A stretch of DNA of 64,000 nucleotides, taken from contig CACYRP010000007.1 in the NCBI GenBank assembly GCA_902776765.1, positions 1 to 64,000 of the forward strand. Direction: 5' to 3'. The DNA is from Fibrobacter succinogenes (GTDB taxonomy: Bacteria; Fibrobacterota; Fibrobacteria; Fibrobacterales; Fibrobacteraceae). Each line of letters starts with the position of its first letter. Position 1 is the stretch's first letter. The notes beneath the pieces were generated by a model. It saw only the letters and a program-made list of their open reading frames with translations, was not told where the DNA came from and searched no databases. Position numbers and translations under genes: made by a program. This document shows positions 17,499 to 55,470 of this stretch, in pieces.

Positions 17499-18473
17499 AT
17501 GAATATCGTTTATGCAAGTGATGATAATTTTGCGGAAATAATGGGCGTGTCCATGCTCTCCTTATTTGAAAACAATAAGGACGTTGAGGAAATTGTTGTC
17601 TTTATTTTGGACGATGGAATAAAACAAAAAAATAAAGCAAATTTGGAACAGCTTGCAAAAGAATACCATAGAACAATAACATTAATCCCTTTAAAAGACC
17701 TTAAACTTAAGTTAAACAATCTTTCCCAACAAAGGGGATCAATAAGTACTTTTTCAAGATTATTTTTATCAACTCTACTCCCAGAATCTTGCAATAAAGC
17801 ATTATACCTTGATTGCGATACTATTGTACGTCATTCAATCAAACCACTGTATAATACAGATTTCGAAAATAATATTGTATGTGGAGTAATGGATTGTATC
17901 AGCAAGCAACATCGTTCTAGAGTCGGATTAGCAGACAATGCGACTTATATAAATGCAGGCATGATGCTAATCGATTTACAAGCCTGGAGAAGCCACCATA
18001 TCGAAGACAATATCGAATCTATTATACTCAAATTTAATGGTCGTGTTCCTTACGCAGACCAAGGAATCATCAATTTAGCCTTGCAAGGTGCAATAAAAAT
18101 CGTCCACCCTCAATACAACTGCATTTCGGTGTATACAGCATTTGACTTTAACGATTTGTTAGAATACAGACAACCTAGTGCCTGCCTTTCCAGCGCGGAA
18201 ATAAATGAAGCCAAAAATGATCCAACTATTGCTCATTTTGTAACCCTGTTTTGCATATCGCGACCTTGGATGAAAAATTCTGTCGGCCCATTTTTTGATG
18301 AATGGAAATCCTATAAACAAAGATCTCCGTGGAAAAACGATCCAGAAAGACCAGTCAAAAAGAATATATTTCAAACAATCGCCGCACTTTTTTACCAACA
18401 CGCCCCTAAAAGCATTAGCCTAACATTACTAGGGTTTCTACACGCACGTATAAAACCAATAGTTATGAGGTAG
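17499..18473 (+). CDS. Family 8 glycosyltransferase
   Basis: The 324-residue cytoplasmic protein is of the GT8 (LPS galactosyl/glucosyltransferase, glycogenin) type. It starts with IVYASDDNFAEIMGVSMLSLFENN, the UDP-sugar-binding strand of this family. It has the metal-binding DxD as YLDCDTIV (about residue 108), the NAGMMLIDL segment and DQGIINLAL. GT8 enzymes retain configuration and usually use UDP-glucose or UDP-galactose. The start at 17499 places the family's first strand directly after Met; the ribosome-binding site is weak. First gene of the A/T-rich block. Confidence 0.88.
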   Translation: MNIVYASDDNFAEIMGVSMLSLFENNKDVEEIVVFILDDGIKQKNKANLEQLAKEYHRTITLIPLKDLKLKLNNLSQQRGSISTFSRLFLSTLLPESCNKALYLDCDTIVRHSIKPLYNTDFENNIVCGVMDCISKQHRSRVGLADNATYINAGMMLIDLQAWRSHHIEDNIESIILKFNGRVPYADQGIINLALQGAIKIVHPQYNCISVYTAFDFNDLLEYRQPSACLSSAEINEAKNDPTIAHFVTLFCISRPWMKNSVGPFFDEWKSYKQRSPWKNDPERPVKKNIFQTIAALFYQHAPKSISLTLLGFLHARIKPIVMR

Positions 18474-18582
18474 TATTTAATAATGCAAGCTAAGTTTGAA
18501 ATTTGAATTCAATATTATTCTTCAAAAAAAATGATAAAAACAACGACTCTACGCGACCTTAAAAAAATTTGAGGAACACAAA

Positions 18583-19362
18583 GTGTCTATAAAGAAAGTT
18601 GTATATACCGTACTAACGGGAAATTATGAGCAATTAGCACAGCATAGTTATGTTGATGCATCTTATGATTACATTTGCTTTTCTAATGACTTCAAGGATT
18701 CTCGTATTGGTATTTGGAAAATTCGAAAAATATCTCTTAATTCTAACGAGAATCAACTAGTATCAAGGTTCCCCAAATTACAGCCACACAAGGTTTTAAA
18801 AGATTACGATATCTCGCTTTACGTAGACGCCAACGTCAACATAAAAACAAAATTCATATTCGATTCCATAGAACAATTACATTCAAAAGGAATATCATTC
18901 GCAGGAGTAAAACACCAAGAAAGGGATTGCTTATATGAAGAAAGCTTAATGGTATTACTAAAAGGCAAAGAACGAAATTTTAGAAAAGTAAAAGAACAAA
19001 TGTCTTTTTATAAAAAAAATCATTTTCCAAAACATTTCGGACTATACGAAGCGAATGTAATTTACCGTATACACAATTCAGAAGATGTGATAAAGCAAAG
19101 TAATGATTGGTGGTTTTGGAGAAAAAATTATTCACGCAGAGATCAACTAAGTCTATCCTATACATTATGGGAAAATAATATACCTTTACATTTTCTGTTA
19201 CCAGAAAACCAAAGTACAAGAAATTCAAAAGAGATTTCATGCAACCCACACCCCATAACAGACAAATACATAATACTACGTTTAAAAAACGCTTATTGTA
19301 AATTTATAATTCCAATTATATTTCGACTTTTTTTCCCTATTTATTACAGACTCATCATTTAA
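18583..19362 (+). CDS. Glycosyltransferase-like protein (DUF616 type)
   Basis: The 259-residue protein resembles the DUF616 family (TOD1/MUCI70-like glycosyltransferases). Markers are VVYTVLTGNYEQL at the N-terminus, DYICFSNDF, the segment ending ISLYVDANV, where a Asp-x-Asn replaces a DxD-like site, GVKHQERDCLYEE and RRDQLSLSYTLW. Start is GTG at 18583, supported by GAGGAA 6 bases upstream; no ATG in frame fits. It has no signal peptide. Probably adds a sugar to the lipid-linked repeat unit at the inner face of the membrane. Donor and acceptor unknown. Confidence 0.75.
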   Translation: MSIKKVVYTVLTGNYEQLAQHSYVDASYDYICFSNDFKDSRIGIWKIRKISLNSNENQLVSRFPKLQPHKVLKDYDISLYVDANVNIKTKFIFDSIEQLHSKGISFAGVKHQERDCLYEESLMVLLKGKERNFRKVKEQMSFYKKNHFPKHFGLYEANVIYRIHNSEDVIKQSNDWWFWRKNYSRRDQLSLSYTLWENNIPLHFLLPENQSTRNSKEISCNPHPITDKYIILRLKNAYCKFIIPIIFRLFFPIYYRLII

Positions 19363-19375
19363 ATTGCAGTAAATT

Positions 19376-20281
19376 ATGAATTCAGTAACAATAATAATTT
19401 CAACATACAACGGATCAAAACATCTTGACAGGCAATTAAAGTCTATATTGTCTCAAATAAATGTTGACATGCATATTTATATTCGAGATGATGGATCTAC
19501 CGACGACAGCACAAGAGACATTTTAGAGAGATATAAACAAAATTATTCTAATATAGATGTTGATTTTGGGAAAAATGTTGGATGGCAGCAAAGTTTCATG
19601 TTAGGTTTAGAAGCCGCCCCAAAAGCTGATTTCTATGCATTTTCCGACCAAGATGATTTATGGTTTGACAATAAATTAGCAACCGCTATTCTATCATTAA
19701 AAAAAGAAGACCCCCAAAAAGCCTTGTTATTTCACTGCAACAAAATATCAACAGACCAAAAGCTAAAACCATTATCCAATCAAATCATACGTTTACCCAA
19801 GCCAATAAATCACCAAAACGCCTTAGTTCAAGAATATGCACAAGGATGCTCTATTGTTATTAACGAAACGGCACGTAATTTGATATTAAAAAAAAGGCCT
19901 TTAGACAATACACCTCATGATTATTGGTGCGGATTAATCTGTTATCTGTTTGGGAAAATCATATATGATGCACAACCATATTTTTACCACATTAGCTATG
20001 GGTTAAACGCATCAGGAGAAGGACATCTATGGAAAAGCAGACTTTTAAGACTCAAATCTTTTTTTGCAAAACAAAATGTATATCACATACCCATAGAGCA
20101 ATTATTGGAAGGCTATTTACATTTATTAGATAAAGAAGACAAAGATTTTTTAGTCAAACTACAAAAATACAAAAAATCAATCACAACCAAATTATCAATT
20201 TTATTTTCTTCAAAATTTCGCAGAAATTCAATTTTAGGAACATTATCTTTAAAATTAGCAATCTTACTTAACAAAATTTAA
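19376..20281 (+). CDS. Family 2 glycosyltransferase (rhamnosyltransferase-like)
   Basis: The 301-residue GT-A enzyme shows VTIIISTYNGSKHLDRQL at the N-terminus, the donor-binding RDDGSTDDS (about residue 40), FSDQDDLWFDNKL (DxD region, about 95) and GCSIVINETA. This combination is typical of the branch annotated as rhamnosyl- or alpha-L-Rha transferases. It inverts configuration and uses a nucleotide sugar in the cytoplasm. It follows the DUF616 gene after 13 bases and is followed after 4 bases by the next transferase, so they are co-transcribed. Confidence 0.85.
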   Translation: MNSVTIIISTYNGSKHLDRQLKSILSQINVDMHIYIRDDGSTDDSTRDILERYKQNYSNIDVDFGKNVGWQQSFMLGLEAAPKADFYAFSDQDDLWFDNKLATAILSLKKEDPQKALLFHCNKISTDQKLKPLSNQIIRLPKPINHQNALVQEYAQGCSIVINETARNLILKKRPLDNTPHDYWCGLICYLFGKIIYDAQPYFYHISYGLNASGEGHLWKSRLLRLKSFFAKQNVYHIPIEQLLEGYLHLLDKEDKDFLVKLQKYKKSITTKLSILFSSKFRRNSILGTLSLKLAILLNKI

Positions 20282-20285
20282 AAAT

Positions 20286-21347
20286 ATGTTAAAATACGCA
20301 ATAAATGGTAGATATCTCATTCGGAAGCAAACTGGACAGGAAAGGTTTGCCAACGAAATCGTAAGAGAATTAGACAAAATTGTAAAGCCAGAAGAATTCG
20401 TCATAGTCGTACCCCAATACGCCCAGATCCATGCACAATACGAAAACATTAAAATTGTAAAATATGGTTCCGTCAAAAGCCATTTATGGGAACAAATTAG
20501 TTTTCTCCGATACATAGTCAAAAATAAATTACTTTCAATAAACCTGACCACAACATGTCCTTTTTGGTCACCAGGAATCGTTTGCATTCACGATGCAGCT
20601 TATTTCGAAATATCAAATTTACTAACAACAAACTTATATGGGAAGCTATCTACAATTTGGCACAGAATCTTAGCCTATGGGGCCGCAAAACGAGCAAAAA
20701 AAATACTAACGGTAAGCAATTATTCAAAAAATCGATTAGCAGAAAATTTAAACATTCCGACAAGTCGTTTTGCAATTTTGCGAAATGGTTGGCAGCATTT
20801 AAATAGAATCAACCCAGACGAGTCTATTTTTTCAATTTTTCCCCCAAAAATCATCCGCCATGAATACTTTATGGCGTTAAGCAGTTTATCTCCTCAAAAG
20901 AATTTCATATGGATTAAAGAAATTGCCAAAAGAAATCCATTGAAGCAATTTATAATATGCGGGAAATATGACGGGGCAACAAATGTTGGACAAGAAACTT
21001 TAAAAAATGAGAACATCTTTTTTACGGGTTACATTAGTGATGAACAAATGAAAGCGCTTATGTCCAATTGCAAAGCATTTATACACCCCGCAATTTATGA
21101 AGGATTTGGAATTCCTCCTTTAGAAGCATTATCTTGTGGAGCACAGTTGATTCTGTCAAACACAACATGTTTGCCCGAAATTTATGAAAATAGTGCACAT
21201 TATATAGATCCTCATAAATACGATTATAACTTAGACAAATTATTACAGGACCCAGTTGAATCAGCCGAGATAATACTAAAAAAATACAATTGGGCAGAAG
21301 AGGCTAAAAAATTACTTGAGGTTATTGATGAAATTGAAAAAAATTAA
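20286..21347 (+). CDS. Family 4 glycosyltransferase
   Basis: The 353-residue GT-B enzyme has a KQTGQERFANEIVREL start matching the acceptor domain of GT4 mannosyl- or glucosyltransferases. In the C-terminal donor domain it has ALSSLSPQKNFIW, FTGYISDEQMKALMSNCKAF and the nucleotide-sugar-binding E-x7-E motif HPAIYEGFGIPPLEALSCG. It starts 4 bases after the preceding gene and has no membrane segment. Sugar specificity cannot be read from sequence. Confidence 0.88.
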   Translation: MLKYAINGRYLIRKQTGQERFANEIVRELDKIVKPEEFVIVVPQYAQIHAQYENIKIVKYGSVKSHLWEQISFLRYIVKNKLLSINLTTTCPFWSPGIVCIHDAAYFEISNLLTTNLYGKLSTIWHRILAYGAAKRAKKILTVSNYSKNRLAENLNIPTSRFAILRNGWQHLNRINPDESIFSIFPPKIIRHEYFMALSSLSPQKNFIWIKEIAKRNPLKQFIICGKYDGATNVGQETLKNENIFFTGYISDEQMKALMSNCKAFIHPAIYEGFGIPPLEALSCGAQLILSNTTCLPEIYENSAHYIDPHKYDYNLDKLLQDPVESAEIILKKYNWAEEAKKLLEVIDEIEKN

Positions 21348-21473
21348 TTTTATGGAAATCTTAGTCATTTCATTTGAGGCTAGAAGCTTATTAAATAAAG
21401 AATAATACAATACTATTTTCACATTCGATAGAATAGCATCGTCAATCAACATCTGCAAAATAAGAGGATTAAC

Positions 21474-22631
21474 ATGAAGTCAATTCTTTTTGATTTATGG
21501 CAAGCTCAGCCATTAGCCGGTTATAAATATCATGGAGGAGCAGAATATATAAAATCAGTATACAATCACTTGATAAATTTTTTTTCTGAAGAATGCTCTA
21601 TTACCGTTTTTTTCAATCCAGCACTTTTTCTTGACGAATGGATTCTAGAATCTATTAACACACATAAGATTACAATAGAACCTATAAAAACAAAAGCGGA
21701 TATCCAAAAAATTTTAGATAAAACGAAATATGATGTATTCTATTCTGGTCTTCCATACATGTATGGGACTTTACGAATTCCAACAGAAACAGTATTTTTC
21801 GGAACAATTCACGGACTACGTTCTATAGAATTTCCAGGAGATGATTTCGCATACAAATATTACGCATCCCCATGGGCTTCAATCAAATCATTTATAAAAA
21901 ATAAAATAAAGGAATTTTATCGAAAAAAAAATATAGAGTTATTAAAAAAAGGAATATTAAATTTAGATAATATTGTATGCGTTTCAAATCATACAAAATA
22001 CGCGATAAAAAATTTTTACCCATTATTAAATAAAAATATCGAATGCTTATACACCCCTCAAAAAGTCTGTTTGTCCCCCAAAATAGACAAGCCAATTATC
22101 AATGATAAATACATTCTATTAATCAATTGCGACAGGATTGAAAAAAATTCATATCGGGCAATCGTTGCTTTAGAAAAACTTTTTTCAAAGAGATTACTTG
22201 AAAAGCATAAAGTTGTAACTATTGGGAAATTACCCCCAAAAATAATTAAAACAATCGTACATAAAGACAAATATATTTCTTATGATTACGTTTCTACAGA
22301 ATCGCTTGAAGGGCTTTACGCCAATTGTGATATTTTTCTTTATCCGACCCTAAACGAAGGATTTGGAATGCCTCCATTAGAAGCAATGAAATACGGTAAA
22401 ACTTGTATTGTGTCTGCCATATGTTCTGTTCCTGAAGTCTGCGGAGATGCTGTTTATTATATCAATCCCTATGACATCAACGAAATTCAAACAAGAATTT
22501 TACTTGCTATAGAAAATAAAATTTCCGAAAAAAAAATAACACAACAATTGCAATTAATTTCCGAAAAACAAAATTCAGATTTACACAAACTTTGTCAACA
22601 CATTACAAACGCATATAAGACTTTTAAATAA
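21474..22631 (+). CDS. Family 4 glycosyltransferase
   Basis: The 385-residue GT-B enzyme has YKYHGGAEYIKSVYNHL in the N-terminal domain and in the C-terminal domain FLYPTLNEGFGMPPLEAMKYGKTCIVS, the EX7E donor-binding region. AGAGGA lies 5 bases before ATG 21474. It is Lys/Ile/Asn-rich like its neighbours, reflecting the A/T bias of the block. A 126-base gap separates it from the preceding gene. Confidence 0.87.
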   Translation: MKSILFDLWQAQPLAGYKYHGGAEYIKSVYNHLINFFSEECSITVFFNPALFLDEWILESINTHKITIEPIKTKADIQKILDKTKYDVFYSGLPYMYGTLRIPTETVFFGTIHGLRSIEFPGDDFAYKYYASPWASIKSFIKNKIKEFYRKKNIELLKKGILNLDNIVCVSNHTKYAIKNFYPLLNKNIECLYTPQKVCLSPKIDKPIINDKYILLINCDRIEKNSYRAIVALEKLFSKRLLEKHKVVTIGKLPPKIIKTIVHKDKYISYDYVSTESLEGLYANCDIFLYPTLNEGFGMPPLEAMKYGKTCIVSAICSVPEVCGDAVYYINPYDINEIQTRILLAIENKISEKKITQQLQLISEKQNSDLHKLCQHITNAYKTFK

Positions 22632-22677
22632 CCATGTATTTTACCATTAATCCATCACTTTTCAAAAGGAGTGAAAA

Positions 22678-23865
22678 ATGAATTCCATAAGCAATCATAT
22701 AAAACATGTCCTTTTTTTTACATACATTCTAGGATGCTTGTCTTTTTTCGATCCCACTTTTTTTGATATTACACCCAAAGCACTTCGTTACATACAAACA
22801 ATTTCATTTGTTTTTTTATACATATTTCTCATAAAAAATAAAATAAAAATAACACCCTATTTTAAAGGTTTTTTTTTGATTGGCGTGGGTATGCTGTTTT
22901 CAATAGGTACAGCAAGTACAATGCATGAAGGACAGTCTTTCACGGAAAGTTTTTTTGCAATGTTACCCCGTTTTTTATCATATATGTTATTTTTTATCTT
23001 ACTAAAATTACAGCCAAACATCCGGTTCACTGAACAAATCATTTTTTTCATAGGCTTAACTAGCGCTCTTGTAGTTATCCAAATATGGATTCTATACCCC
23101 AACATTCTTTTCGGATCTTTTGTAGATTCTTCTATACGAGGAACAAGAATGACCGCAAACGGAGATACGTTTAAAATATGTTTTATGTTTTACAGTCTCA
23201 ACATGCTTCTATTAAAAAATTCATCAAAAAAATATGTTTTTTTCTTCATCATATGTGCAATTAGTGTTATTTTGGGGATTGTTAGACAAGTTATAGTTAT
23301 AACAACAGCGCTATGCTTAATGTTCTGTTTTTTCCACATCAGCATAAAAAAATGGGCATTTTTGCTTATCATTGTAACAATTGGTTTTATTTCTATTTCA
23401 AAAATGGATTTTTATCAAAGATTAGTTGAATTAACCGAAATAGAACGACACGAAGATCGAGGAGGAGAAAACATCAGAATTACTGCTACAAGATATTACA
23501 TAAACGAGGCTCAAGAAAACTTAATTACTAGAATTTTTGGCAACGGAGTACCAACTGAACAAAGCGCCTATGCAAAGAAGGTTGTACAAAACGAATCAAA
23601 AACACTATGTTTCGGTTCCGATGTAGGGTTGGCTTATTTTTATCACTTATACGGAATTTTAGCCATATTGGGATTAATATCACTTACTTGGGCTACATGG
23701 AAAATAAAGATTCCATTTAGATTTCTATATTTAAAATACTGTTTTGCATATATTCTATTAGCATCAATTGCATCTGGTCCAATAATATATGTTAACGAAT
23801 GTATCGCATTACCATTTATTTGTTACATGCTAGGAAAAATAAACAAAGAAGAGAAAATAGTTTGA
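22678..23865 (+). CDS. wzy: Polytopic membrane protein, probable O-antigen/capsule polymerase (Wzy type)
   Basis: The 395-residue protein has about ten to eleven hydrophobic membrane segments and a large outside loop between about residues 250 and 325 (RHEDRGGENIRITATRYYINEAQENL). This topology and the position in the locus point to the polymerase that joins repeat units in the periplasm. Sequence is poorly conserved in this family, so the call depends on topology and context; an O-antigen ligase is the alternative. AAGGAG lies upstream of ATG 22678. It overlaps nothing and is 11 bases before the next transferase. Confidence 0.72.
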   Translation: MNSISNHIKHVLFFTYILGCLSFFDPTFFDITPKALRYIQTISFVFLYIFLIKNKIKITPYFKGFFLIGVGMLFSIGTASTMHEGQSFTESFFAMLPRFLSYMLFFILLKLQPNIRFTEQIIFFIGLTSALVVIQIWILYPNILFGSFVDSSIRGTRMTANGDTFKICFMFYSLNMLLLKNSSKKYVFFFIICAISVILGIVRQVIVITTALCLMFCFFHISIKKWAFLLIIVTIGFISISKMDFYQRLVELTEIERHEDRGGENIRITATRYYINEAQENLITRIFGNGVPTEQSAYAKKVVQNESKTLCFGSDVGLAYFYHLYGILAILGLISLTWATWKIKIPFRFLYLKYCFAYILLASIASGPIIYVNECIALPFICYMLGKINKEEKIV

Positions 23866-23876
23866 GGTAACAACAA

Positions 23877-24791
23877 ATGCAAGTTTCTATTATCATCATC
23901 ACATACAACACATGCCAAATGACATCAAAATGTATTGAAAGTATCTTTTCCAAAACACACGATGTTGAATTTGAAGTTATACTAGTTGATAACGCAAGTT
24001 CTGATGGTAGTAAAGATTTTTTTGAAAAGGATTCTCGCATAAAATACATTTATTCGAATGAGAATCTAGGTTTTGGAAGAGGCAATAATTTAGGCTACAA
24101 GTATGCAACCGGAAATTATATTTTTTTACTAAATTCAGATACCATCCTATTAAATAATGCAGTAAAGGAATTTTATGATTTCATGCAAAATGCACCCCAA
24201 AAAATAGGTTGTGTAGGATGTGTTATGCAAAAGAATGATGGATCTCGAATACATTCATACCATACTATATATCCCTGCCTTTCTTGGATATTCAAAGAAA
24301 TTCTGTGTTATATTATACCCAGAATATATAATCCATATAAAAAGCGCGATCTTAATCAACAAAAAAATGTTTACCCATTACAAGTTGCAGTTGTTACAGG
24401 AGCAGATTTATTTATTCGACGTGAAGTTCTCGAAAAATGCGGTCTATTTGATTCTGATTTCTTTATGTATTACGAAGAAACAGAATTACAATATCGTTTT
24501 TTAAAGCATGGTTTCCAAAGTTACATTATCAATACACCAAAAATCATTCACCTTGCTGGCGAGTCATCAAAAAATCAAAAACACATACTTCAAAAAATGC
24601 AAATGCCTTTAAAAAGTCGATTTATATATGCAAGCAAAATATTTTCGCCGATCCAACTTATTATTTTTCGTTTTATGCACCTGTTGATGATACCTCGTAT
24701 TTTAATCTCATTGACATCATGGGAAAATAAGAAAAAAATATTAAAAATTCTTTTTGCAAAATATCGTGTAAAAAGATCATTTCCCGATTAA
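23877..24791 (+). CDS. Family 2 glycosyltransferase
   Basis: The 304-residue GT-A enzyme shows VSIIIITYNTCQMTSKCIES, VDNASSDGSKDFF, NLGFGRGNNLGY and NSDTILLNNAV, the donor-binding pattern of the rhamnosyltransferase WbbL-like GT2 branch. GADLFIRREVLEKCGLFDSDFFMYYEETE is the catalytic-base region of the same branch. A hydrophobic amphipathic stretch near the C-terminus may touch the membrane. GAGG at 23864 overlaps the stop of the polymerase gene, so translation is likely coupled. Confidence 0.88.
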   Translation: MQVSIIIITYNTCQMTSKCIESIFSKTHDVEFEVILVDNASSDGSKDFFEKDSRIKYIYSNENLGFGRGNNLGYKYATGNYIFLLNSDTILLNNAVKEFYDFMQNAPQKIGCVGCVMQKNDGSRIHSYHTIYPCLSWIFKEILCYIIPRIYNPYKKRDLNQQKNVYPLQVAVVTGADLFIRREVLEKCGLFDSDFFMYYEETELQYRFLKHGFQSYIINTPKIIHLAGESSKNQKHILQKMQMPLKSRFIYASKIFSPIQLIIFRFMHLLMIPRILISLTSWENKKKILKILFAKYRVKRSFPD

Positions 24792-24837
24792 ACGGAATGC
24801 ATATTCATTTTTAACAATATTACTTTTTTAGATTTTT

Positions 24838-25560
24838 ATGATGAATTATTTTTTTGATAAAATTGCAATCTTATTGAGGCAACTACGGTGTCTGCCATAT
24901 ACATTGTATTTTAACTTTCATTACTTACCATTTAAACAGGCAATAAAGCTTCCAATTATTTTATATAAATCAAGTCTAATAAAATGCAAGGGACGCATAA
25001 TTATTGAATCTAATAAGATTTGGCATTCCATGATTATATTAGGAAAACACACATGCTCTATTTATCCAAATTCAGGAATAACCTATGAAAACAACGGAGG
25101 AACATTAGTATTCAAAGGCAAATGCTTAATCGGCAGCGATTCATTTATATCAATAGGGCCCAAAGCTACTGTTTCTATTGGTGATAATTTCGAATGTAAC
25201 GCAGCATTGAAACTTGTTAGCCACTACAAAATAGACTTTGCCAATGATGTAAGTATCGGTTTTGAGAACTTTATTGTTGATACTGACTTTCATAGACTAT
25301 CTTGTGTAGAAAATCAATTTACAAAAGATCTCCATAAAGCATATGAAGCTATACAAATTGGCGAGAGTTGTTGGTTAGGCTCTAAATGTTGCACTTTTAA
25401 GGGAACCTTTTTACCAGATTTTTGCGTAGTCGCATCGTGTTCTATGCTTAACAAAAAGTACAATGTTCCATCATATACTTTACTAGCAGGCATTCCGGCA
25501 ACAGTTAAAAAAAATGGTATATATCGAAATCGCAAAAATGATAAAATAATAATTGATTGA
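24838..25560 (+). CDS. Left-handed beta-helix acyltransferase
   Basis: The 240-residue protein has hexapeptide-repeat character from about residue 95 onward (LIGSDSFISIGPKATVSIGDNF, ANDVSIGFENFIVDTDFH, IGESCWLGSKC) and a proximal lysine/asparagine-rich N-terminal part. It is related to the WbbJ/maltose-O-acetyltransferase group, which moves acetyl from acetyl-CoA to a sugar hydroxyl. The His of DTDFHRLS could be catalytic. It probably O-acetylates the polysaccharide repeat. Confidence 0.75.
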   Translation: MMNYFFDKIAILLRQLRCLPYTLYFNFHYLPFKQAIKLPIILYKSSLIKCKGRIIIESNKIWHSMIILGKHTCSIYPNSGITYENNGGTLVFKGKCLIGSDSFISIGPKATVSIGDNFECNAALKLVSHYKIDFANDVSIGFENFIVDTDFHRLSCVENQFTKDLHKAYEAIQIGESCWLGSKCCTFKGTFLPDFCVVASCSMLNKKYNVPSYTLLAGIPATVKKNGIYRNRKNDKIIID

Positions 25561-25570
25561 GGATGTATTC

Positions 25571-26557
25571 ATGACAAGTGTTATAGTAAAAACATTCGCT
25601 CCCGTAATTATTCCAACATTGTGCAGATATCAACATTTTGTAGAATGCCTAGAATCGCTAGCACATTGCACTTGGGCTAATAAAACAGATGTTTTTATCG
25701 GATTAGATTATCCAGCAAATGATTCGCATAGGGACGGCTATAACAAAATTAAGATTTATTTGCAGAAAAACAAAAAAAATTTAAATTTTAAATCTTTAAA
25801 TATTATAGAACGAAAATTCAACTACGGTTTAGGAAAACATGGAAATCTCAATGAATTAAAAAAAGAGGTCCTAACTAAATATGACCGTATTATTGTAAGT
25901 GAAGATGACAATATTTTTAGTCCGAATTTTTTAGTTTACATGAACAAGGGATTAGAAATATTTCAAAACGACACATCCGTACTAGCCATTAACGGATACC
26001 GTCATCCATATCCCTTAAAATATAATAACAATACTTTTATAAGAGAAAATGTTGACTTTTCAGCATGGGGATATGGTATTTGGAAAAATCGAGATGAAAA
26101 AGCAGAATCACTAAGCATAAATTTTTTTAGAAAAAAATTTTCTTTAATAAATTTTTTCAAAATTTATTTGGATAATGGCGGTAATCGCGCCCTTAATTTT
26201 TATGATTATGCATTTAGATGGAATGGACTTATGAGTGATTCACCTTTAAGTATTTATGCAAAACTAGAAAAAATGGATGTAATAATGCCCGCAGCTATTT
26301 CACTTGTTCGAAACATGGGATGGGATAATTCGGGAGAACATTATTTAAGCAACAGCAACCTTCAATCAATCCATTCCAATCAAAAAATTTCAGAAAAAAA
26401 TGATTTTATTTTTAATGGAACAGGCTTTGAATATTATACCGAAAACAGGAAAATTTTTAAAAATTATTCATACGCCAAAATACCTAATAAGGTGTTTTGG
26501 AGAAGATGTTTGAAAATTATTGCAAAATATTTTTTTCTAAAATTCAGACTTTTTTAA
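25571..26557 (+). CDS. Glycosyltransferase of GT-A fold
   Basis: The 328-residue protein shows APVIIPTLCRYQHFVECLESL at the start, a candidate metal-binding segment in IIVSEDDNIFSPNFLVYMNKGLE (EDDN instead of DxD) and SAWGYGIWKNRDEKAESL. This pattern resembles GNT-I-like bacterial transferases found in capsule loci. ATG 25571 is chosen over the earlier in-frame ATG, which would overlap the preceding gene, because GAGGA lies 7 bases upstream. The sugar donor is unknown. A 200-base gap without a recognisable feature follows. Confidence 0.75.
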   Translation: MTSVIVKTFAPVIIPTLCRYQHFVECLESLAHCTWANKTDVFIGLDYPANDSHRDGYNKIKIYLQKNKKNLNFKSLNIIERKFNYGLGKHGNLNELKKEVLTKYDRIIVSEDDNIFSPNFLVYMNKGLEIFQNDTSVLAINGYRHPYPLKYNNNTFIRENVDFSAWGYGIWKNRDEKAESLSINFFRKKFSLINFFKIYLDNGGNRALNFYDYAFRWNGLMSDSPLSIYAKLEKMDVIMPAAISLVRNMGWDNSGEHYLSNSNLQSIHSNQKISEKNDFIFNGTGFEYYTENRKIFKNYSYAKIPNKVFWRRCLKIIAKYFFLKFRLF

Positions 26558-49775: not shown

Positions 49776-50516
49776 TTACCACCACTGGAGATTGAAAGTT
49801 ACCGTGTAACGGTCAATAGGGTGTGTTCGCGTCGAGTTCCACTCAGCGATTTTATAAGTCAAATCACGACCGTAACGAATTTCGATACCGAAAGCTAATC
49901 GTTTGCTAGCACGCACGGCAATATAACCACCTGCACCGACTTCATCGTAAAACACAGGCGCAGAGGAATGATTAAACATAGCACCATCTTCTGCTAAAAA
50001 TCCTTCTCGACCGTTTCGAGAAATATGCTGAGTTAGACCTATACGGAATTGATGCGATGAAATTGGGATTTGTTCGATAACAGTAATTCCACCACCCCAT
50101 TGAAAATCAGCATGCTCGTATTTTTCAAGTTGCCATAAACACATGTTACTCCATCCCATTACTCCAAAATAATCCGAGACAAAACCAACTTGGAAATACG
50201 GCGTAATCCAGTCAAAACCACCACCTATTTTGAAATTTCCGATTTTTTTTTGAAAGTCAAATGTTATTTGCCCCGGAATTTCGTCATCACTGTAAGAGTG
50301 ATCTTTGGGTGGTGATTTACTTTTAACGCTTTTGTAGGGATAATACCTTGGATGCTGTTCATCATGTCCAGAAGAAAAAGCCAAAGTTACATTTTTCTGC
50401 AAATCGCCATCACCTTGTTCCATAAACGCAGCGGCTGAAGGCGGATGGATAATCGACAAACTACATCCGCACAACCCCAACACAACGATCAAAAGAATTA
50501 CATTCAAACGAATCAT
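49776..50516 (-). CDS. Outer-membrane-like lipoprotein, paralogue of 51357-52073
   Basis: The protein has 246 residues with a lipobox (VVLGLCGC, Cys17) after a short hydrophobic segment. The mature part starts HPPSAAAFMEQGDGDLQKN, then continues as alternating amphipathic strands ending in QWW, as in a small beta-barrel. It is about half identical to the gene at 51357, with FVSDYFGVMGWSN, QWGGGITVIEQ, GLTQHISRNGRE and EIRYGRDLTYK shared. Function unknown. It converges on the FNT gene with 6 bases between the stops. Confidence 0.7.
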   Translation of the reverse strand: MIRLNVILLIVVLGLCGCSLSIIHPPSAAAFMEQGDGDLQKNVTLAFSSGHDEQHPRYYPYKSVKSKSPPKDHSYSDDEIPGQITFDFQKKIGNFKIGGGFDWITPYFQVGFVSDYFGVMGWSNMCLWQLEKYEHADFQWGGGITVIEQIPISSHQFRIGLTQHISRNGREGFLAEDGAMFNHSSAPVFYDEVGAGGYIAVRASKRLAFGIEIRYGRDLTYKIAEWNSTRTHPIDRYTVTFNLQWW

Positions 50517-51356: not shown

Positions 51357-52073
51357 TTACCACCACTGGACATTAAACATCAACGTAAATCGATTTACAG
51401 ATTTTTCTTTTTCGCCATCTACAACCTTATAGGTCAAATCACGACCATAACGGAATTCTAGACCCATACCGAGGCGTTTGCCGACAATTCCCGCGACATA
51501 CGCACCACCGCCGATTTCATCGTAAAAAACGGGAGCAGGAGTTGCCGACAGTTCGCCAAATTTATTTTGATACGCTTCTCGGCCATTTCTAGAGAGGTGT
51601 TGAGTAAGGCCGACACGAAGTTTGCGGAAGTAAAAAGGCAATTGTTCAATAATTGTAATGCCGCCACCCCATTGCAAATCATGCTCTACTTTTTCAAATT
51701 TCCATAAACACAAATTGCTCCATCCCATTACGCCAAAATAATCCGACACAAAACCAAATTGTAAAAAAGGCGTGAGCCAATCCAGTCCGCCTCCAATTTT
51801 AAAATTTCCAATTTGCTTTTGAATATCGAAGCTCGCCTGAAAATTCCATTCCATATTGTTGTAACTGTAATCTTCACTGGGCAATGAACTTTTCTTTATC
51901 GTTTCATAAGATTCATAACGCCCGTCGCCCTTTGTACCCCAGACGCCCGAAACAGTCGCATTTTTCTGCAAATCGCCATCGCCCTTTTCCATAAACGCAG
52001 CGGCAGAAGGCGGATGAACCGCACAACCCGAAAAAACAAGAGCAAGAGCTATAAGAATTACATTGAACTTCAT
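51357..52073 (-). CDS. Outer-membrane-like lipoprotein, paralogue of 49776-50516
   Basis: The protein has 238 residues with a lipobox (ALVFSGC, Cys17) and the mature start AVHPPSAAAFMEKGDGDLQKN. Further shared features are IGNFKIGGGLDWLTPF, FVSDYFGVMGWSNLCLWKFEK, GLTQHLSRNGREAY and a last strand ending VQWW. It looks like a lipid-anchored barrel or a barrel with a retained lipoprotein-like signal. Two close paralogues on either side of sodB suggest a local duplication. No known family recognised. Confidence 0.7.
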   Translation of the reverse strand: MKFNVILIALALVFSGCAVHPPSAAAFMEKGDGDLQKNATVSGVWGTKGDGRYESYETIKKSSLPSEDYSYNNMEWNFQASFDIQKQIGNFKIGGGLDWLTPFLQFGFVSDYFGVMGWSNLCLWKFEKVEHDLQWGGGITIIEQLPFYFRKLRVGLTQHLSRNGREAYQNKFGELSATPAPVFYDEIGGGAYVAGIVGKRLGMGLEFRYGRDLTYKVVDGEKEKSVNRFTLMFNVQWW

Positions 52074-52127: not shown

Positions 52128-53174
52128 ATGACAAAACGTAAAAAAACGGAGACAAATTGGGAAAAAAATCAAATTAAAAAGTTTCCTTTGTATATTATTT
52201 TCATGCGAAATACTAGAAGATTTTTTCACGGAGTCATTCCTCTTCAAGGCATGACTGCTGCGGTTATCCAATACGAACGCAAGCGTTCGTGCTGTCTAAC
52301 CTTGCACGTCATTCTCTTGCTCGCGATGCTGATGGCACCGCTTTTCGCACATGACTACTGGCTAGAGCCCGGAGATATTAAATGCGACGGTCTGGCAGGC
52401 CTATTAGGCGGAGGAGGCGGAGGAATTGCCACAAAGATAATCTGCGGTATAAAAATTCCTTCTAAAGGCCCCGACGATATTTTCCAGTGCTACACTCCTG
52501 ACAACAAAGGAATCTGCCATCCAAGCAACCTATACGCAAGCCGTTCGGAACTCCCCGCTCTAGAACAACCCAAAACCTTAGAACGCGACATCAGCTGCTA
52601 CCGGTATAAAAACGAAGCCTACATCGTTGTCGAAACATCCATCCCGGAACAAGTCATCGACTCCATGACGCAACACCCTATTGTCACAAGATGCTACATA
52701 GACAGCATGGGGTGTCAAGAAGCTATCGTTAACCAGGATAGTGGAAAGTGGTGGCCATACCATTTTCATTTTTGCAAAAACACCGAAACCACGGCTATGG
52801 GCTGCCCAGTTTCAGAAAAAGGGCTTTCGCTTGTTTTCAACGAAAAGGGTCAATTGACAGAATGGAATCTCGACGCATTACGACTTTACCTTGACATGAA
52901 ATCAGAAAACAATGTCTCGCGATTCATGAAGAGGGCGGAACAGGAACGAACTCACAAAATCAATTACACAATAACATTACCATGGAAATTTTCAAAAGAA
53001 GACGCTATAGCACTCAGCACATCATCTGTTCAAAACGCAAAAGGAATGCAGTTTTTCTCGGGCACTAAAAAAGAAGGCCGAATCGACATAAAGCTTAATT
53101 CAATGCAAGACGCAATCAATACTTGCAAAGAACAGCCCTTGAAAAATTCGGTCCAGATTGGAGGTAAAAAATGA
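52128..53174 (+). CDS. Cysteine-rich secreted protein, first gene of a three-gene operon
   Basis: Up to 348 residues. The export signal (CCLTLHVILLLAMLMAPLFA, cut before HDYW) begins well inside the frame, so the true start is more likely ATG 52203 or ATG 52251 than 52128; none has a good ribosome-binding site. After a glycine run the protein has many cysteines. A module at about residues 150-245 (ISCYRYKNEAYIVVETSIPE, then TRCYIDSMGCQ, CPVSEKGLSLVF, TEWNLDALRLY) recurs in the third gene. No known family. Its stop overlaps the next ATG (ATGA). Confidence 0.6.
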   Translation: MTKRKKTETNWEKNQIKKFPLYIIFMRNTRRFFHGVIPLQGMTAAVIQYERKRSCCLTLHVILLLAMLMAPLFAHDYWLEPGDIKCDGLAGLLGGGGGGIATKIICGIKIPSKGPDDIFQCYTPDNKGICHPSNLYASRSELPALEQPKTLERDISCYRYKNEAYIVVETSIPEQVIDSMTQHPIVTRCYIDSMGCQEAIVNQDSGKWWPYHFHFCKNTETTAMGCPVSEKGLSLVFNEKGQLTEWNLDALRLYLDMKSENNVSRFMKRAEQERTHKINYTITLPWKFSKEDAIALSTSSVQNAKGMQFFSGTKKEGRIDIKLNSMQDAINTCKEQPLKNSVQIGGKK

Positions 53175-54145
53175 TCAGAAAAACATTTGCCTCCATCCTA
53201 TTTCTAGGCATCAGCGCTCTATTCACATTTGCAACATCAAGCGAAATTCCAGACAACATTCCTGCCTATTGCATCACTTTCACGAGCGACAACAGCTACA
53301 AGACATCACTCATTCATAAAGCAAAAGGCATTGAAATATCGCGGAGCTACAGCCAAACTACATTCAACAATTTTCCTCGAAACCTGATTGATTCATCTCT
53401 TGAAAGCAATGTTTACCATCTAGAAAATGCAAAAGAAATCCTTCCCAAGTTTTACGGAAAAATTTTCCGCGGAAGCCAAAGCGAGAGCGACTGCAACGGC
53501 CACAAAGTAAAGCGCAAAGAAAAGGAATTCGACGTTTTGCTCGTCGGCCCATGCGTAAAATCCATGCCGGTCGCCCACTATTGCCTCATCGAAGGGAAGC
53601 AACCAATTCTTCACCGCACCGAAACATTTGAAAATATTCCAAAGGTAACGCTATTTGAAACATCTGACGGTAACCGATACAGTGACATTTATTGCAGTGG
53701 CACCGCTAAAATGGAAAATATTACAGCATGGGACTTCCCTGAAATTGGCAAATTCAAGCTAGGCCATTTTGTAGAAGAAGACACATGCCATGGGCAAAGT
53801 TATTGGCGTCGGAACAACACCACAATCCTTCCCGAATACATTGATTTATCAGCCGACACCGCCTTTTCTGTCACAACGCCACAGCTAAAGCAACTATACG
53901 GCAAGAACATTCCGATTACATGGGACATCTCCATGGAATGCAACTTTGACAAAGTAAACAAGCATATCGAATACGAAATTTTGATCACAGGAAAATGCCC
54001 GTCCAAAATCAAATACAACAGCAAAAAGCAACAGGCAATAGAGCCGTGGAGCAACAGCAAATTAAAAATACACGGAAAGGATTACGACTACTATACCAAT
54101 AAGAATTGGCAAGAATTCTGCATCGAAAGGAAGGTTATCAAATGA
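53171..54145 (+). CDS. Cysteine-containing secreted protein with an internal repeat
   Basis: The protein has 324 residues with a signal peptide (MIRKTFASILFLGISALFTFA). Two related modules are visible. One (about 75-130) reads SSLESNVYHLENAKEILPKF, then C, then FDVLLVGPCVKS. The other (about 225-280) reads LSADTAFSVTTPQLKQLYGK, then C, then EYEILITGKCPSK. The third gene carries the same kind of module. The Cys pair in each may form a disulfide. It overlaps its neighbours by four bases at both ends (ATGA), implying coupled translation. Family unknown. Confidence 0.65.
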   Translation: MIRKTFASILFLGISALFTFATSSEIPDNIPAYCITFTSDNSYKTSLIHKAKGIEISRSYSQTTFNNFPRNLIDSSLESNVYHLENAKEILPKFYGKIFRGSQSESDCNGHKVKRKEKEFDVLLVGPCVKSMPVAHYCLIEGKQPILHRTETFENIPKVTLFETSDGNRYSDIYCSGTAKMENITAWDFPEIGKFKLGHFVEEDTCHGQSYWRRNNTTILPEYIDLSADTAFSVTTPQLKQLYGKNIPITWDISMECNFDKVNKHIEYEILITGKCPSKIKYNSKKQQAIEPWSNSKLKIHGKDYDYYTNKNWQEFCIERKVIK

Positions 54146-55470
54146 AATACAGAGCAATGCCTATATTCGTGATGATTTTTCTTTTCGTATTCCTAGCGGA
54201 ATCTGCTTGGAGTAAAGGCCCCGTTCAATTCTGTGCCTCATTCGAAGACGAGAGTCATTACAGATTGTTGCTGCTCGATGAACAGCAACCACTCTCCGAT
54301 TTAAAACCGCAGCCAGGGAAACAAGCGATTCCGGATTCAATCGATTGCGAGCACCACTTCTGGGCACATTCACTTTGGCCCAGTTTCGAAGGCGATAAAC
54401 GAAGCAACTTTAAGCGATTCAACTACGACGTAGGAAATCCAAGGGATATCGATAAGCAATGTCGCACAAACGCCTTATCCGCCAAGGATTTTCTAAAAAA
54501 GTTCGCAGTTCCTAAACTGGAATGGAATTACGCATCCATTGATGCATCCTTGTACGAAAGAGACTCGGCAGAGAAATTCCTAAAGCGTTTTTATAATAAA
54601 GTATTTACCGGCTATTGGATGGCAGACCTCGTCTGCGTTTGTCCCCACTTTGAAGCATCACATCAATCGCGTACCATCAAGGCAAAGCTTATCGGAAAAT
54701 GCAAACCCGATTTCAAAAAAGAAAAGCGAATCATTCCCGAAAGCTACGAATTGCAAATAAAATTTGATGACGATGAGGATAACAAAATTATCCCGAAACT
54801 TAAAAATCCAAACTGGATTCCTTGTTACAGGGATGACTGGAAAGGGGGTTGTGAAATTAGAAACTATGCTAGTAAAAATACGATTCCCGTTCACGGACAA
54901 ACTTCAGGAATCGACGAAAGTTTGGAATGCTATCACGTTGACGGAAAATTTTATCTGAATTTCGCCACCAATCTACCCAAAATATCCTACGGAACAAGCC
55001 TCGATTACCAGCCCTGCTATACAGACAGCACTCGCTGCAAATACGGTGATTATTCTGCCCCACAACTCAAAACCCCATTTTATTCATGCGAAAAATTCAA
55101 CCTCAAGGAAGGCGGCTGCGAAACCGTTTCACACGGTCTTGACTTCATTGTTGCCGAAGACCTAAAATTTCACGGCTGGAACCGCGAAGGATACTTTTAC
55201 TTCTTTAGGCAAAAGACAGAAAACGAATTGGACGATTTTTTAGGAAACATTTTCTATAATCGCAAGCCATTCAAAGAATATTACAGCGACATATTGCCCG
55301 AAGGAATTTCAGACAAAGATATTTCCCGCATGGGCGACGAGGCCGTCCGCGTAACGCCCGGCATGTTTTTTTACGATGGACTCTCGAAAGTCGGTTACGA
55401 AAAGTTCGAAAAGCCCATGTTCAAAAACCTCAAAGAAGCCTTGCAGCACTGCAAGGAACATAGGTTCTAA
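54142..55470 (+). CDS. Cysteine-rich secreted protein combining modules of the two preceding genes
   Basis: The protein has 442 residues with a signal peptide (about MKYRAMPIFVMIFLFVFLAE, cut near AWS). The first half holds a module like those of gene two (YASIDASLYERDSAEKFLKR, C-V-C, then IKAKLIGKCKPD). The second half holds the module of gene one (LECYHVDGKFYLNFATNLPK, YTDSTRC, SCEKFNLKEGGC, GLDFIVAEDLKFHGWN). It therefore looks like a fusion of both building blocks. ATG 54142 has AAAGGAAGG upstream. Function unknown; export and disulfides suggest a periplasmic or surface role. Confidence 0.65.
   Translation: MKYRAMPIFVMIFLFVFLAESAWSKGPVQFCASFEDESHYRLLLLDEQQPLSDLKPQPGKQAIPDSIDCEHHFWAHSLWPSFEGDKRSNFKRFNYDVGNPRDIDKQCRTNALSAKDFLKKFAVPKLEWNYASIDASLYERDSAEKFLKRFYNKVFTGYWMADLVCVCPHFEASHQSRTIKAKLIGKCKPDFKKEKRIIPESYELQIKFDDDEDNKIIPKLKNPNWIPCYRDDWKGGCEIRNYASKNTIPVHGQTSGIDESLECYHVDGKFYLNFATNLPKISYGTSLDYQPCYTDSTRCKYGDYSAPQLKTPFYSCEKFNLKEGGCETVSHGLDFIVAEDLKFHGWNREGYFYFFRQKTENELDDFLGNIFYNRKPFKEYYSDILPEGISDKDISRMGDEAVRVTPGMFFYDGLSKVGYEKFEKPMFKNLKEALQHCKEHRF

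What the first reader, a model, noticed from the sequence alone, without database searches (positions are those of the whole stretch)
52128..55470. Operon of modular cysteine-rich secreted proteins, the third a combination of the other two
Gene two contains two copies of one module (…VY..., C, …L.GKC). Gene three has that module followed by the module that forms the second half of gene one. All three have export signals, and the stops and starts overlap by four bases at both junctions. No known family was recognised, so this could be a new secreted complex or toxin/adhesin set.
Basis: partly seen in the sequence, partly recalled or inferred. Interest (0 to 1): 0.58.

Follow-up and report, generated by a model that had tools for sequence, protein, structure and literature searches.

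The report
Exported immunity-like protein operon in Fibrobacter
A three-gene operon in a rumen Fibrobacter encodes exported proteins built from the same modules as the self-protection partners of a family of large secreted, peptidase-like weapons, so it looks like a toxin-less shield rather than an adhesin or toxin.

Summary
Three genes (52128/52203-53174, 53171-54145, 54142-55470) overlap by ATGA at both junctions and have signal-like N-termini. Gene 3 is module B followed by module A. Gene 1 ends in A. Gene 2 is two diverged B modules. The genes are under purifying selection and confined to Fibrobacteraceae; no Pfam, NCBIfam or PDB relative was found. Fold prediction failed (pLDDT 41 and 30).

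Relatives explain the modules. Stand-alone B proteins, and a second exported family (S2) that resembles gene 2's second half, lie directly downstream of large secreted polyserine proteins. After a conserved YDALGR-like boundary these end in one of two unrelated HExxH domains. Type P1 goes with B, type P2 with S2. Carriers 71-85% alike before the boundary can differ wholly after it. Relatives lacking the HExxH domain lack the partner (0 of 7). HExxH tail remnants sit before orphan partners, also in the window's own genome. That is polymorphic effector/immunity anatomy. Module A is one of the effectors' variable middle domains.

Best reading: a peptidase-less exported polyimmunity operon that also carries an effector-type domain. 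Homology and linkage are shown; neutralisation, and what A does, are inferred. The "new adhesin or toxin set" reading is only partly supported.

The parts
52128..53174 (+). Gene 1: exported protein, Gly-rich Cys-flanked segment + module A (likely start ATG 52203)
   Evidence: dN/dS 0.18-0.48
52476..53135 (+). Module A of gene 1
   Evidence: A profile E 4.4e-77 (the profile includes this sequence); independent hhalign E 4.7e-40 against gene 3 C-half
52233..52307 (+). 75-bp repeat insertion, in frame, in the export-signal codons of gene 1, flanked by GTCATTC
   Evidence: absent from orthologue L058, present in L062, L056, L057; 8 other full or partial matches in the own genome
53171..53174 (+). 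ATGA stop/start overlap of genes 1 and 2
53171..54145 (+). Gene 2: exported protein with two diverged B modules
   Evidence: dN/dS 0.15-0.29
53255..53563 (+). Module B1 of gene 2, the type found behind P1 effectors
   Evidence: hhalign E 5.6e-42 against stand-alone B proteins
53564..54142 (+). Module B2 of gene 2, resembling the S2 family found behind P2 effectors
   Evidence: hhalign E 6.8e-7 over 130 columns against S2, lowest shuffled control 0.0023
54142..54145 (+). ATGA stop/start overlap of genes 2 and 3
54142..55470 (+). Gene 3: exported protein, module B followed by module A
   Evidence: dN/dS 0.10-0.21
54217..54768 (+). Module B of gene 3
   Evidence: hhalign E 6.1e-26 against stand-alone B proteins
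54808..55464 (+). Module A of gene 3
   Evidence: hhalign E 2.8e-23 against the middle domains of the L052, L053 and L060 polyserine proteins

Best explanation
The operon encodes exported, toxin-less immunity-type proteins (a polyimmunity operon) belonging to a Fibrobacteraceae polymorphic effector system. In that system a large secreted polyserine-linked carrier ends, behind a YDALGR-like boundary, in an exchangeable HExxH (metallopeptidase-like) domain. The next gene(s) downstream encode an exported partner matched to that domain: B for type P1, S2 for type P2. Gene 2 joins a P1-type B module to an S2-like module, as in the fused partner proteins behind some P1 effectors. Genes 1 and 3 carry module A, which in some carriers is the variable middle domain; gene 3 fuses it to a B module. 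Proposed working: the three proteins are made together by coupled translation and exported to the periplasm or cell surface. Their B modules bind and block incoming HExxH effectors of rivals. The A modules place them where A-type effectors dock, or act as decoys. Shown: module homology, linkage, cassette exchange, tail remnants, orphan partners. Inferred: that HExxH domains are toxic peptidases, that B and S2 neutralise them, and everything about what A does.
For: A B profile made from operon proteins alone (26 sequences) finds the stand-alone partner B proteins at E 2e-45 to 3e-6. A stand-alone B profile matches gene 2 B1 at 5.6e-42 and gene 3 B at 6e-26; gene 2 B2 matches S2 at 6.8e-7. P1 domains covering 90% or more of the profile: 11 of 11 have B downstream, but 9 of these 11 loci were found through B, leaving 2 of 2 unselected. 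P2 domains covering 60% or more, with enough downstream DNA: 15 of 16 have S2; 11 of the 16 were not used to build the P2 profile, and 11 of those 11 have S2. Carriers without an HExxH domain: 0 of 7 have B or S2 downstream. P1 distance tracks that of its neighbour B: r 0.977, 0 of 20000 permutations, 11 loci. Eight carrier pairs 71-85% identical before the boundary have no match after it. P1 tail remnants precede B in 5 of 5 cases. A P2 tail remnant precedes S2+B in the window's own genome, which has no P1 match and no complete P2 domain. Module A is the middle domain of 4 of 14 carriers tested, one of which (L052) has P1 and is followed by B.
Against: No toxicity, binding or neutralisation was tested. 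The operon is not next to any P1 or P2 domain or remnant in the window. It looks vertically kept: in the window, L057, L058 and L062 it sits between the glutamate-synthase-like gene and the type III glutamine-synthetase-like gene (gene names recognised by me), with the same three genes in 11 loci, unlike the strain-to-strain variation described for polyimmunity loci (passages of PMC3482391). Its B modules form their own clades rather than recent copies. Immunity proteins are not known to me to carry an effector's middle domain, so A is unexplained. Six of the 15 operon-bearing genomes also have a complete P1 or P2 domain, so 'shield without weapon' is not general. One P2 locus (G106:C267) is followed by B-B, not S2. 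Divergent P1-like domains in G003 and G105 (4 loci) have no B.
Confidence: 0.5

Rival explanations
1. The operon is an independent, vertically kept envelope complex (structural or ligand-binding) whose modules A and B were separately reused by the effector system as middle domain and immunity domain.
For: Same three-gene order in 11 loci and a fixed chromosomal place in 4 of them; purifying selection; operon B modules form own clades; A is present although immunity proteins need no carrier domain; a beta-barrel-like lipoprotein gene lies divergently beside it in the window and L058.
Against: Most stand-alone B genes lie behind HExxH effectors or their remnants, gene 2 has the B + S2-like layout of fused partner proteins, and an effector/partner pair plus a three-gene operon share a contig in G082 (L049).
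Confidence: 0.3
2. B and S2 are not immunity proteins but processing partners, secretion chaperones or propeptide-like inhibitors of a digestive surface protease; the operon is a chaperone set that lost its client.
For: Partner genes directly follow the HExxH domain and track its type; known secreted-protease inhibitors also lie beside their protease (recalled, no call).
Against: Tail remnants with orphan partners, tandem partner arrays and swaps of the whole C-terminal cassette behind an otherwise 71-85% identical carrier are expected of effector/immunity displacement and not of a housekeeping protease.
Confidence: 0.12
3. One reading: a secreted toxin or adhesin set.
For: Exported, Cys-rich, modular; module A also occurs in large secreted polyserine proteins.
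Against: The toxin-like part of those proteins (HExxH domain) is missing here; B belongs to the partner family; no adhesin or toxin family in Pfam, NCBIfam or PADLOC.
Confidence: 0.06

Closest known systems
Polyimmunity loci and polyimmunity proteins of polymorphic toxin systems (passages of PMC3482391)
   Same: Closely spaced same-direction genes without an intervening toxin cassette; proteins joining two or more immunity-type modules; partners of C-terminal toxin cassettes.
   Different: B and S2 matched none of the families searched; the proteins are exported; gene content is fixed across species rather than variable; two proteins carry an effector middle domain (A).
CdiA/CdiI and their orphan toxin/immunity modules (passages of PMC9086364)
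   Same: Conserved boundary motif before an exchangeable C-terminal domain, matched downstream partner, displaced toxin fragments with orphan partners.
   Different: Carrier is a polyserine-linked Cys-rich protein, boundary is YDALGR-like, C-terminal domains carry HExxH, partners are exported, remnants are short C-terminal tails.
DUF922 (Pfam PF06037)
   Same: 5 of 9 P1 domains give weak DUF922 matches (best E 0.002) and both have HExxH (for DUF922 recalled).
   Different: The scores I saw (15.2 and 13.4 bits) are below the curated cut-off of 27 bits.

Membership tests
Polymorphic toxin system (the related effector loci) | Conserved carrier with exchangeable C-terminal domain behind a boundary motif | tested here: met
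   8 carrier pairs 71-85% identical before YDALGR with no match after it
Polymorphic toxin system (the related effector loci) | Downstream partner gene matched to the C-terminal domain | tested here: met
   P1-B 11 of 11 (9 selected through B), P2-S2 15 of 16, domain-less carriers 0 of 7; distance correlation r 0.977
Polymorphic toxin system (the related effector loci) | Displaced toxin fragments with orphan partners | tested here: met
   P1 tails before B 5 of 5; P2 tails among S2 genes in G015:C40 and before S2 in G000:C15
Polymorphic toxin system (the related effector loci) | C-terminal domain belongs to a known toxin family and is toxic | tested here: inconclusive
   invariant HExxH in 9 of 9 P1 and 5 of 5 P2 rows, DUF922 only below cut-off; toxicity not testable here
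Polyimmunity locus (the window operon) | Members homologous to immunity proteins adjacent to toxins | tested here: met
   the immunity role of those partners is itself inferred
Polyimmunity locus (the window operon) | Tandem, same orientation, tiny spacing, no toxin cassette between | tested here: met
   ATGA overlaps; no P1 or P2 in the window
Polyimmunity locus (the window operon) | Content varies between strains | tested here: not met
   same three genes in 11 loci, though two-gene forms with a 732-755 aa fusion exist; so it is not filed as a typical polyimmunity locus
Polyimmunity locus (the window operon) | Neutralises toxins | not testable with these tools
   needs binding or protection assays
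Type IX secretion cargo | C-terminal sorting domain | tested here: inconclusive
   no Pfam sorting-domain match in genes 1-3 or the carriers scanned; Fibrobacter-specific signals may not be in Pfam

The most novel reading that the evidence does not exclude
Fibrobacteraceae run an undescribed polymorphic effector system that acts in the cell envelope: polyserine-linked secreted carriers with exchangeable HExxH domains, protected by exported, cassette-matched immunity modules. The window operon is a vertically fixed shield that fuses immunity modules to an effector's own targeting domain (A), protecting by co-localisation or decoy at the docking site rather than by cytoplasmic neutralisation.
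Probability: 0.35. Interest if true: 0.75.

Novelty: new variant of a known kind. Interest (0 to 1): 0.6.

Why it matters
Fibrobacter species are major fibre degraders of the rumen, yet I found no paper describing contact or diffusible protein weapons in them (searches; only open-licence full texts, and the sole relevant hit was the general survey PMC3482391). If right, this gives two exported immunity-type families (B, S2), two effector-domain types (P1, P2) and a testable pairing rule, and turns several sets of unannotated Cys-rich secreted genes into a competition system. An immunity module fused to an effector's own middle domain would be an unusual way to defend.

Tried and rejected
Structure: two AlphaFold2 jobs, gene 3 (pLDDT 41.3, pTM 0.38) and gene 2 (pLDDT 30.1), too poor to interpret. 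Foldseek gave no match with E at or below 0.001 and VIA-align 2 had best Z 2.3, so the fold is unknown. Profiles against PDB: nothing for A, B, P1 or P2.

Glutaredoxin-like weak hits to gene 3 (E 0.03-0.6) and the Imm17 and ferredoxin-oxidoreductase hits to gene 1 were rejected as far below cut-off, as were scattered sub-threshold Pfam hits of single members.

Idea that all effector middle domains are A: rejected. 4 of 14 match at E 6e-12 or better; the other 10 at 8e-4 or worse.

First automatic split of gene 2 modules was faulty; its hhalign values were discarded and redone.

Viral contigs, plasmids and phages: no relative.

Dropped from counts: P2 loci L208 and L211 (683 and 493 bp of downstream DNA only), carrier L255 (cut by the contig end), carrier L053 (contig end).

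Full report
What is there. The window lies in a Fibrobacter genome: relatives found are rumen Fibrobacter MAGs (one record is titled only 'Bacterium'), and the window is contig C7 of G000. Three genes on the + strand overlap by ATGA at both junctions. Profile comparison confirms two unrelated modules: A (gene 1 second half, gene 3 second half; E 4.7e-40) and B (gene 3 first half and, diverged, both halves of gene 2; E 8.9e-16, 8.4e-7 and 2.8e-6), with column-shuffled controls no better than 0.022 and A vs B no better than 0.048. All three have a strong N-terminal hydrophobic stretch (heuristic only). dN/dS is 0.10-0.48 in 18 of 18 pairwise gene comparisons.

Distribution. Gene 3 relatives occur in 19 of 111 family genomes. 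In 167 genomes of the phylum, module A occurs in 18, all in one genus, and module B in 30, in three genera of one family; all 18 A genomes also have B. The three-gene order was read directly in 11 loci. A two-gene form, gene 2 plus a 732-755 aa B-A fusion with an extra C-terminal part, is in G000:C49, G060, G037 and G036. No match was found in viral contigs (gene 3), plasmids (gene 3) or phages (gene 2).

The relatives that explain B. Reading the loci of stand-alone B genes showed that most lie directly behind a large secreted gene with polyserine linkers and a C-terminal HExxH motif. These carriers share a Cys-rich region ending in a YDALGR-like motif. Behind it follows one of two domains, P1 (9 rows) or P2 (5 rows), which do not match each other (E 0.33) but both hold an invariant HExxH. 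P1 is weakly like DUF922, below the curated cut-off.

Pairing. P1 with 90% or more profile coverage: 11 of 11 followed by B; 9 of these loci had been found through B, so only 2 are unselected. P2: 15 of 16 loci with enough downstream DNA are followed by S2, an exported family; the exception is G106:C267, followed by B-B. Of the 16, 11 were not profile seeds, and all 11 have S2. A Fisher test on 11/0 versus 1/15 gives 9e-7, which overstates the case because of the selected P1 loci. Carriers that end about 20 residues after the boundary, or otherwise without P1 or P2, have no B or S2 behind them: 0 of 7. P1 identity and neighbour-B identity correlate at r 0.977 (0 of 20000 permutations, 11 loci). 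Linked genes would correlate anyway; the telling control is that carriers 71-85% identical before the boundary have wholly different domains after it in 8 pairs. So domain and partner move together and the carrier does not.

Remnants and orphans. Short P1 tails precede B in 5 of 5 cases, and P2 tails lie among S2 genes in G015:C40. In the window's own genome a P2 tail, S2 and B remain at G000:C15 (L047, L216), while no P1 match and no complete P2 domain was found in this 93% complete assembly. This is the picture described for displaced CDI modules (passages of PMC9086364).

Where the operon fits. A B profile made only from operon proteins finds the stand-alone B proteins at E 2e-45 to 3e-6. 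A stand-alone B profile matches gene 2 B1 at 5.6e-42; gene 2 B2 matches S2 at 6.8e-7 over 130 columns (lowest shuffled control 0.0023), so gene 2 repeats the B + S2 layout of fused partners such as L049:4419-5447. Operon B modules form their own well-supported clades among the partner B modules, and B2 falls on the S2 side with modest support, 87/66; several long branches make deep placements unsure. Module A is the middle domain of 4 of 14 carriers tested. In G082 an effector/partner pair and a three-gene operon lie on one contig 2.7 kb apart (L049).

Mechanism. I take B and S2 to be exported immunity or inhibitor modules and the operon to be a toxin-less, exported polyimmunity operon that also carries an effector-type domain (confidence 0.5). 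Against it: the operon is vertically stable, constant in content and not next to any effector, and A is unexplained. Six of 15 operon genomes also have a complete P1 or P2 domain (G029, G036, G077, G080, G082, G085). The main rival is an independent envelope complex that shares modules with the effector system (0.3).

Known or new. Pfam, NCBIfam and PADLOC have no family for genes 1-3. Single members of A and B have only sub-threshold Pfam hits, and the PDB has no relative by sequence profile. For the carriers, S2 and the stand-alone B protein scanned, NCBIfam and PADLOC gave nothing. The kind of system is known; the families, the export of the partners and the A-bearing immunity-type proteins are the new part. 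Literature searches. Of the papers I saw passages of PMC3482391 and PMC9086364, and search listings only for the rest.

Noticed in passing
window 52233-52307: A 75-bp repeat with a palindromic core sits in frame in the export-signal codons of gene 1 between GTCATTC repeats. It is present in 3 orthologues (L062, L056, L057), absent in L058, and 8 further full or partial matches lie elsewhere in the genome.
   Followed up: partly
window 49776-50516 and 51357-52073 (minus strand): Two paralogous lipoprotein genes with beta-barrel-like sequence ends flank a superoxide-dismutase-like gene; the second is divergent from gene 1, and L058 has the same neighbour.
   Followed up: no
L046:6494-9819 (G000:C49); also L050, L061, L065: Second copy of the system in the own genome: a gene-2 relative plus a 732-aa B-A protein with a coiled-coil-like stretch and a further unassigned C-terminal part.
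   Followed up: partly
window 52377-52445; L046:9259-9753; N-termini of L052 and L063 carriers: A Cys-flanked run of glycines (LLGGGGGG-like) recurs in gene 1 of the window, in B1 of the other gene-2 type and at the start of some carriers, hinting at segment exchange.
   Followed up: no
L161, L162, L175, L176, L177 upstream of the carriers: A small lipoprotein gene (about 160-185 aa) precedes the polyserine carrier in several loci and may be part of the effector operon.
   Followed up: no
L221 (G106:C198): An S2 match lies in the same long open frame as a P2 match, with the P2 tail in another frame: a frame-broken or fused effector/partner.
   Followed up: no
window 18001-26000: GC falls to 0.30-0.33 against about 0.5 in much of the rest of the window, suggesting an acquired block.
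   Followed up: no
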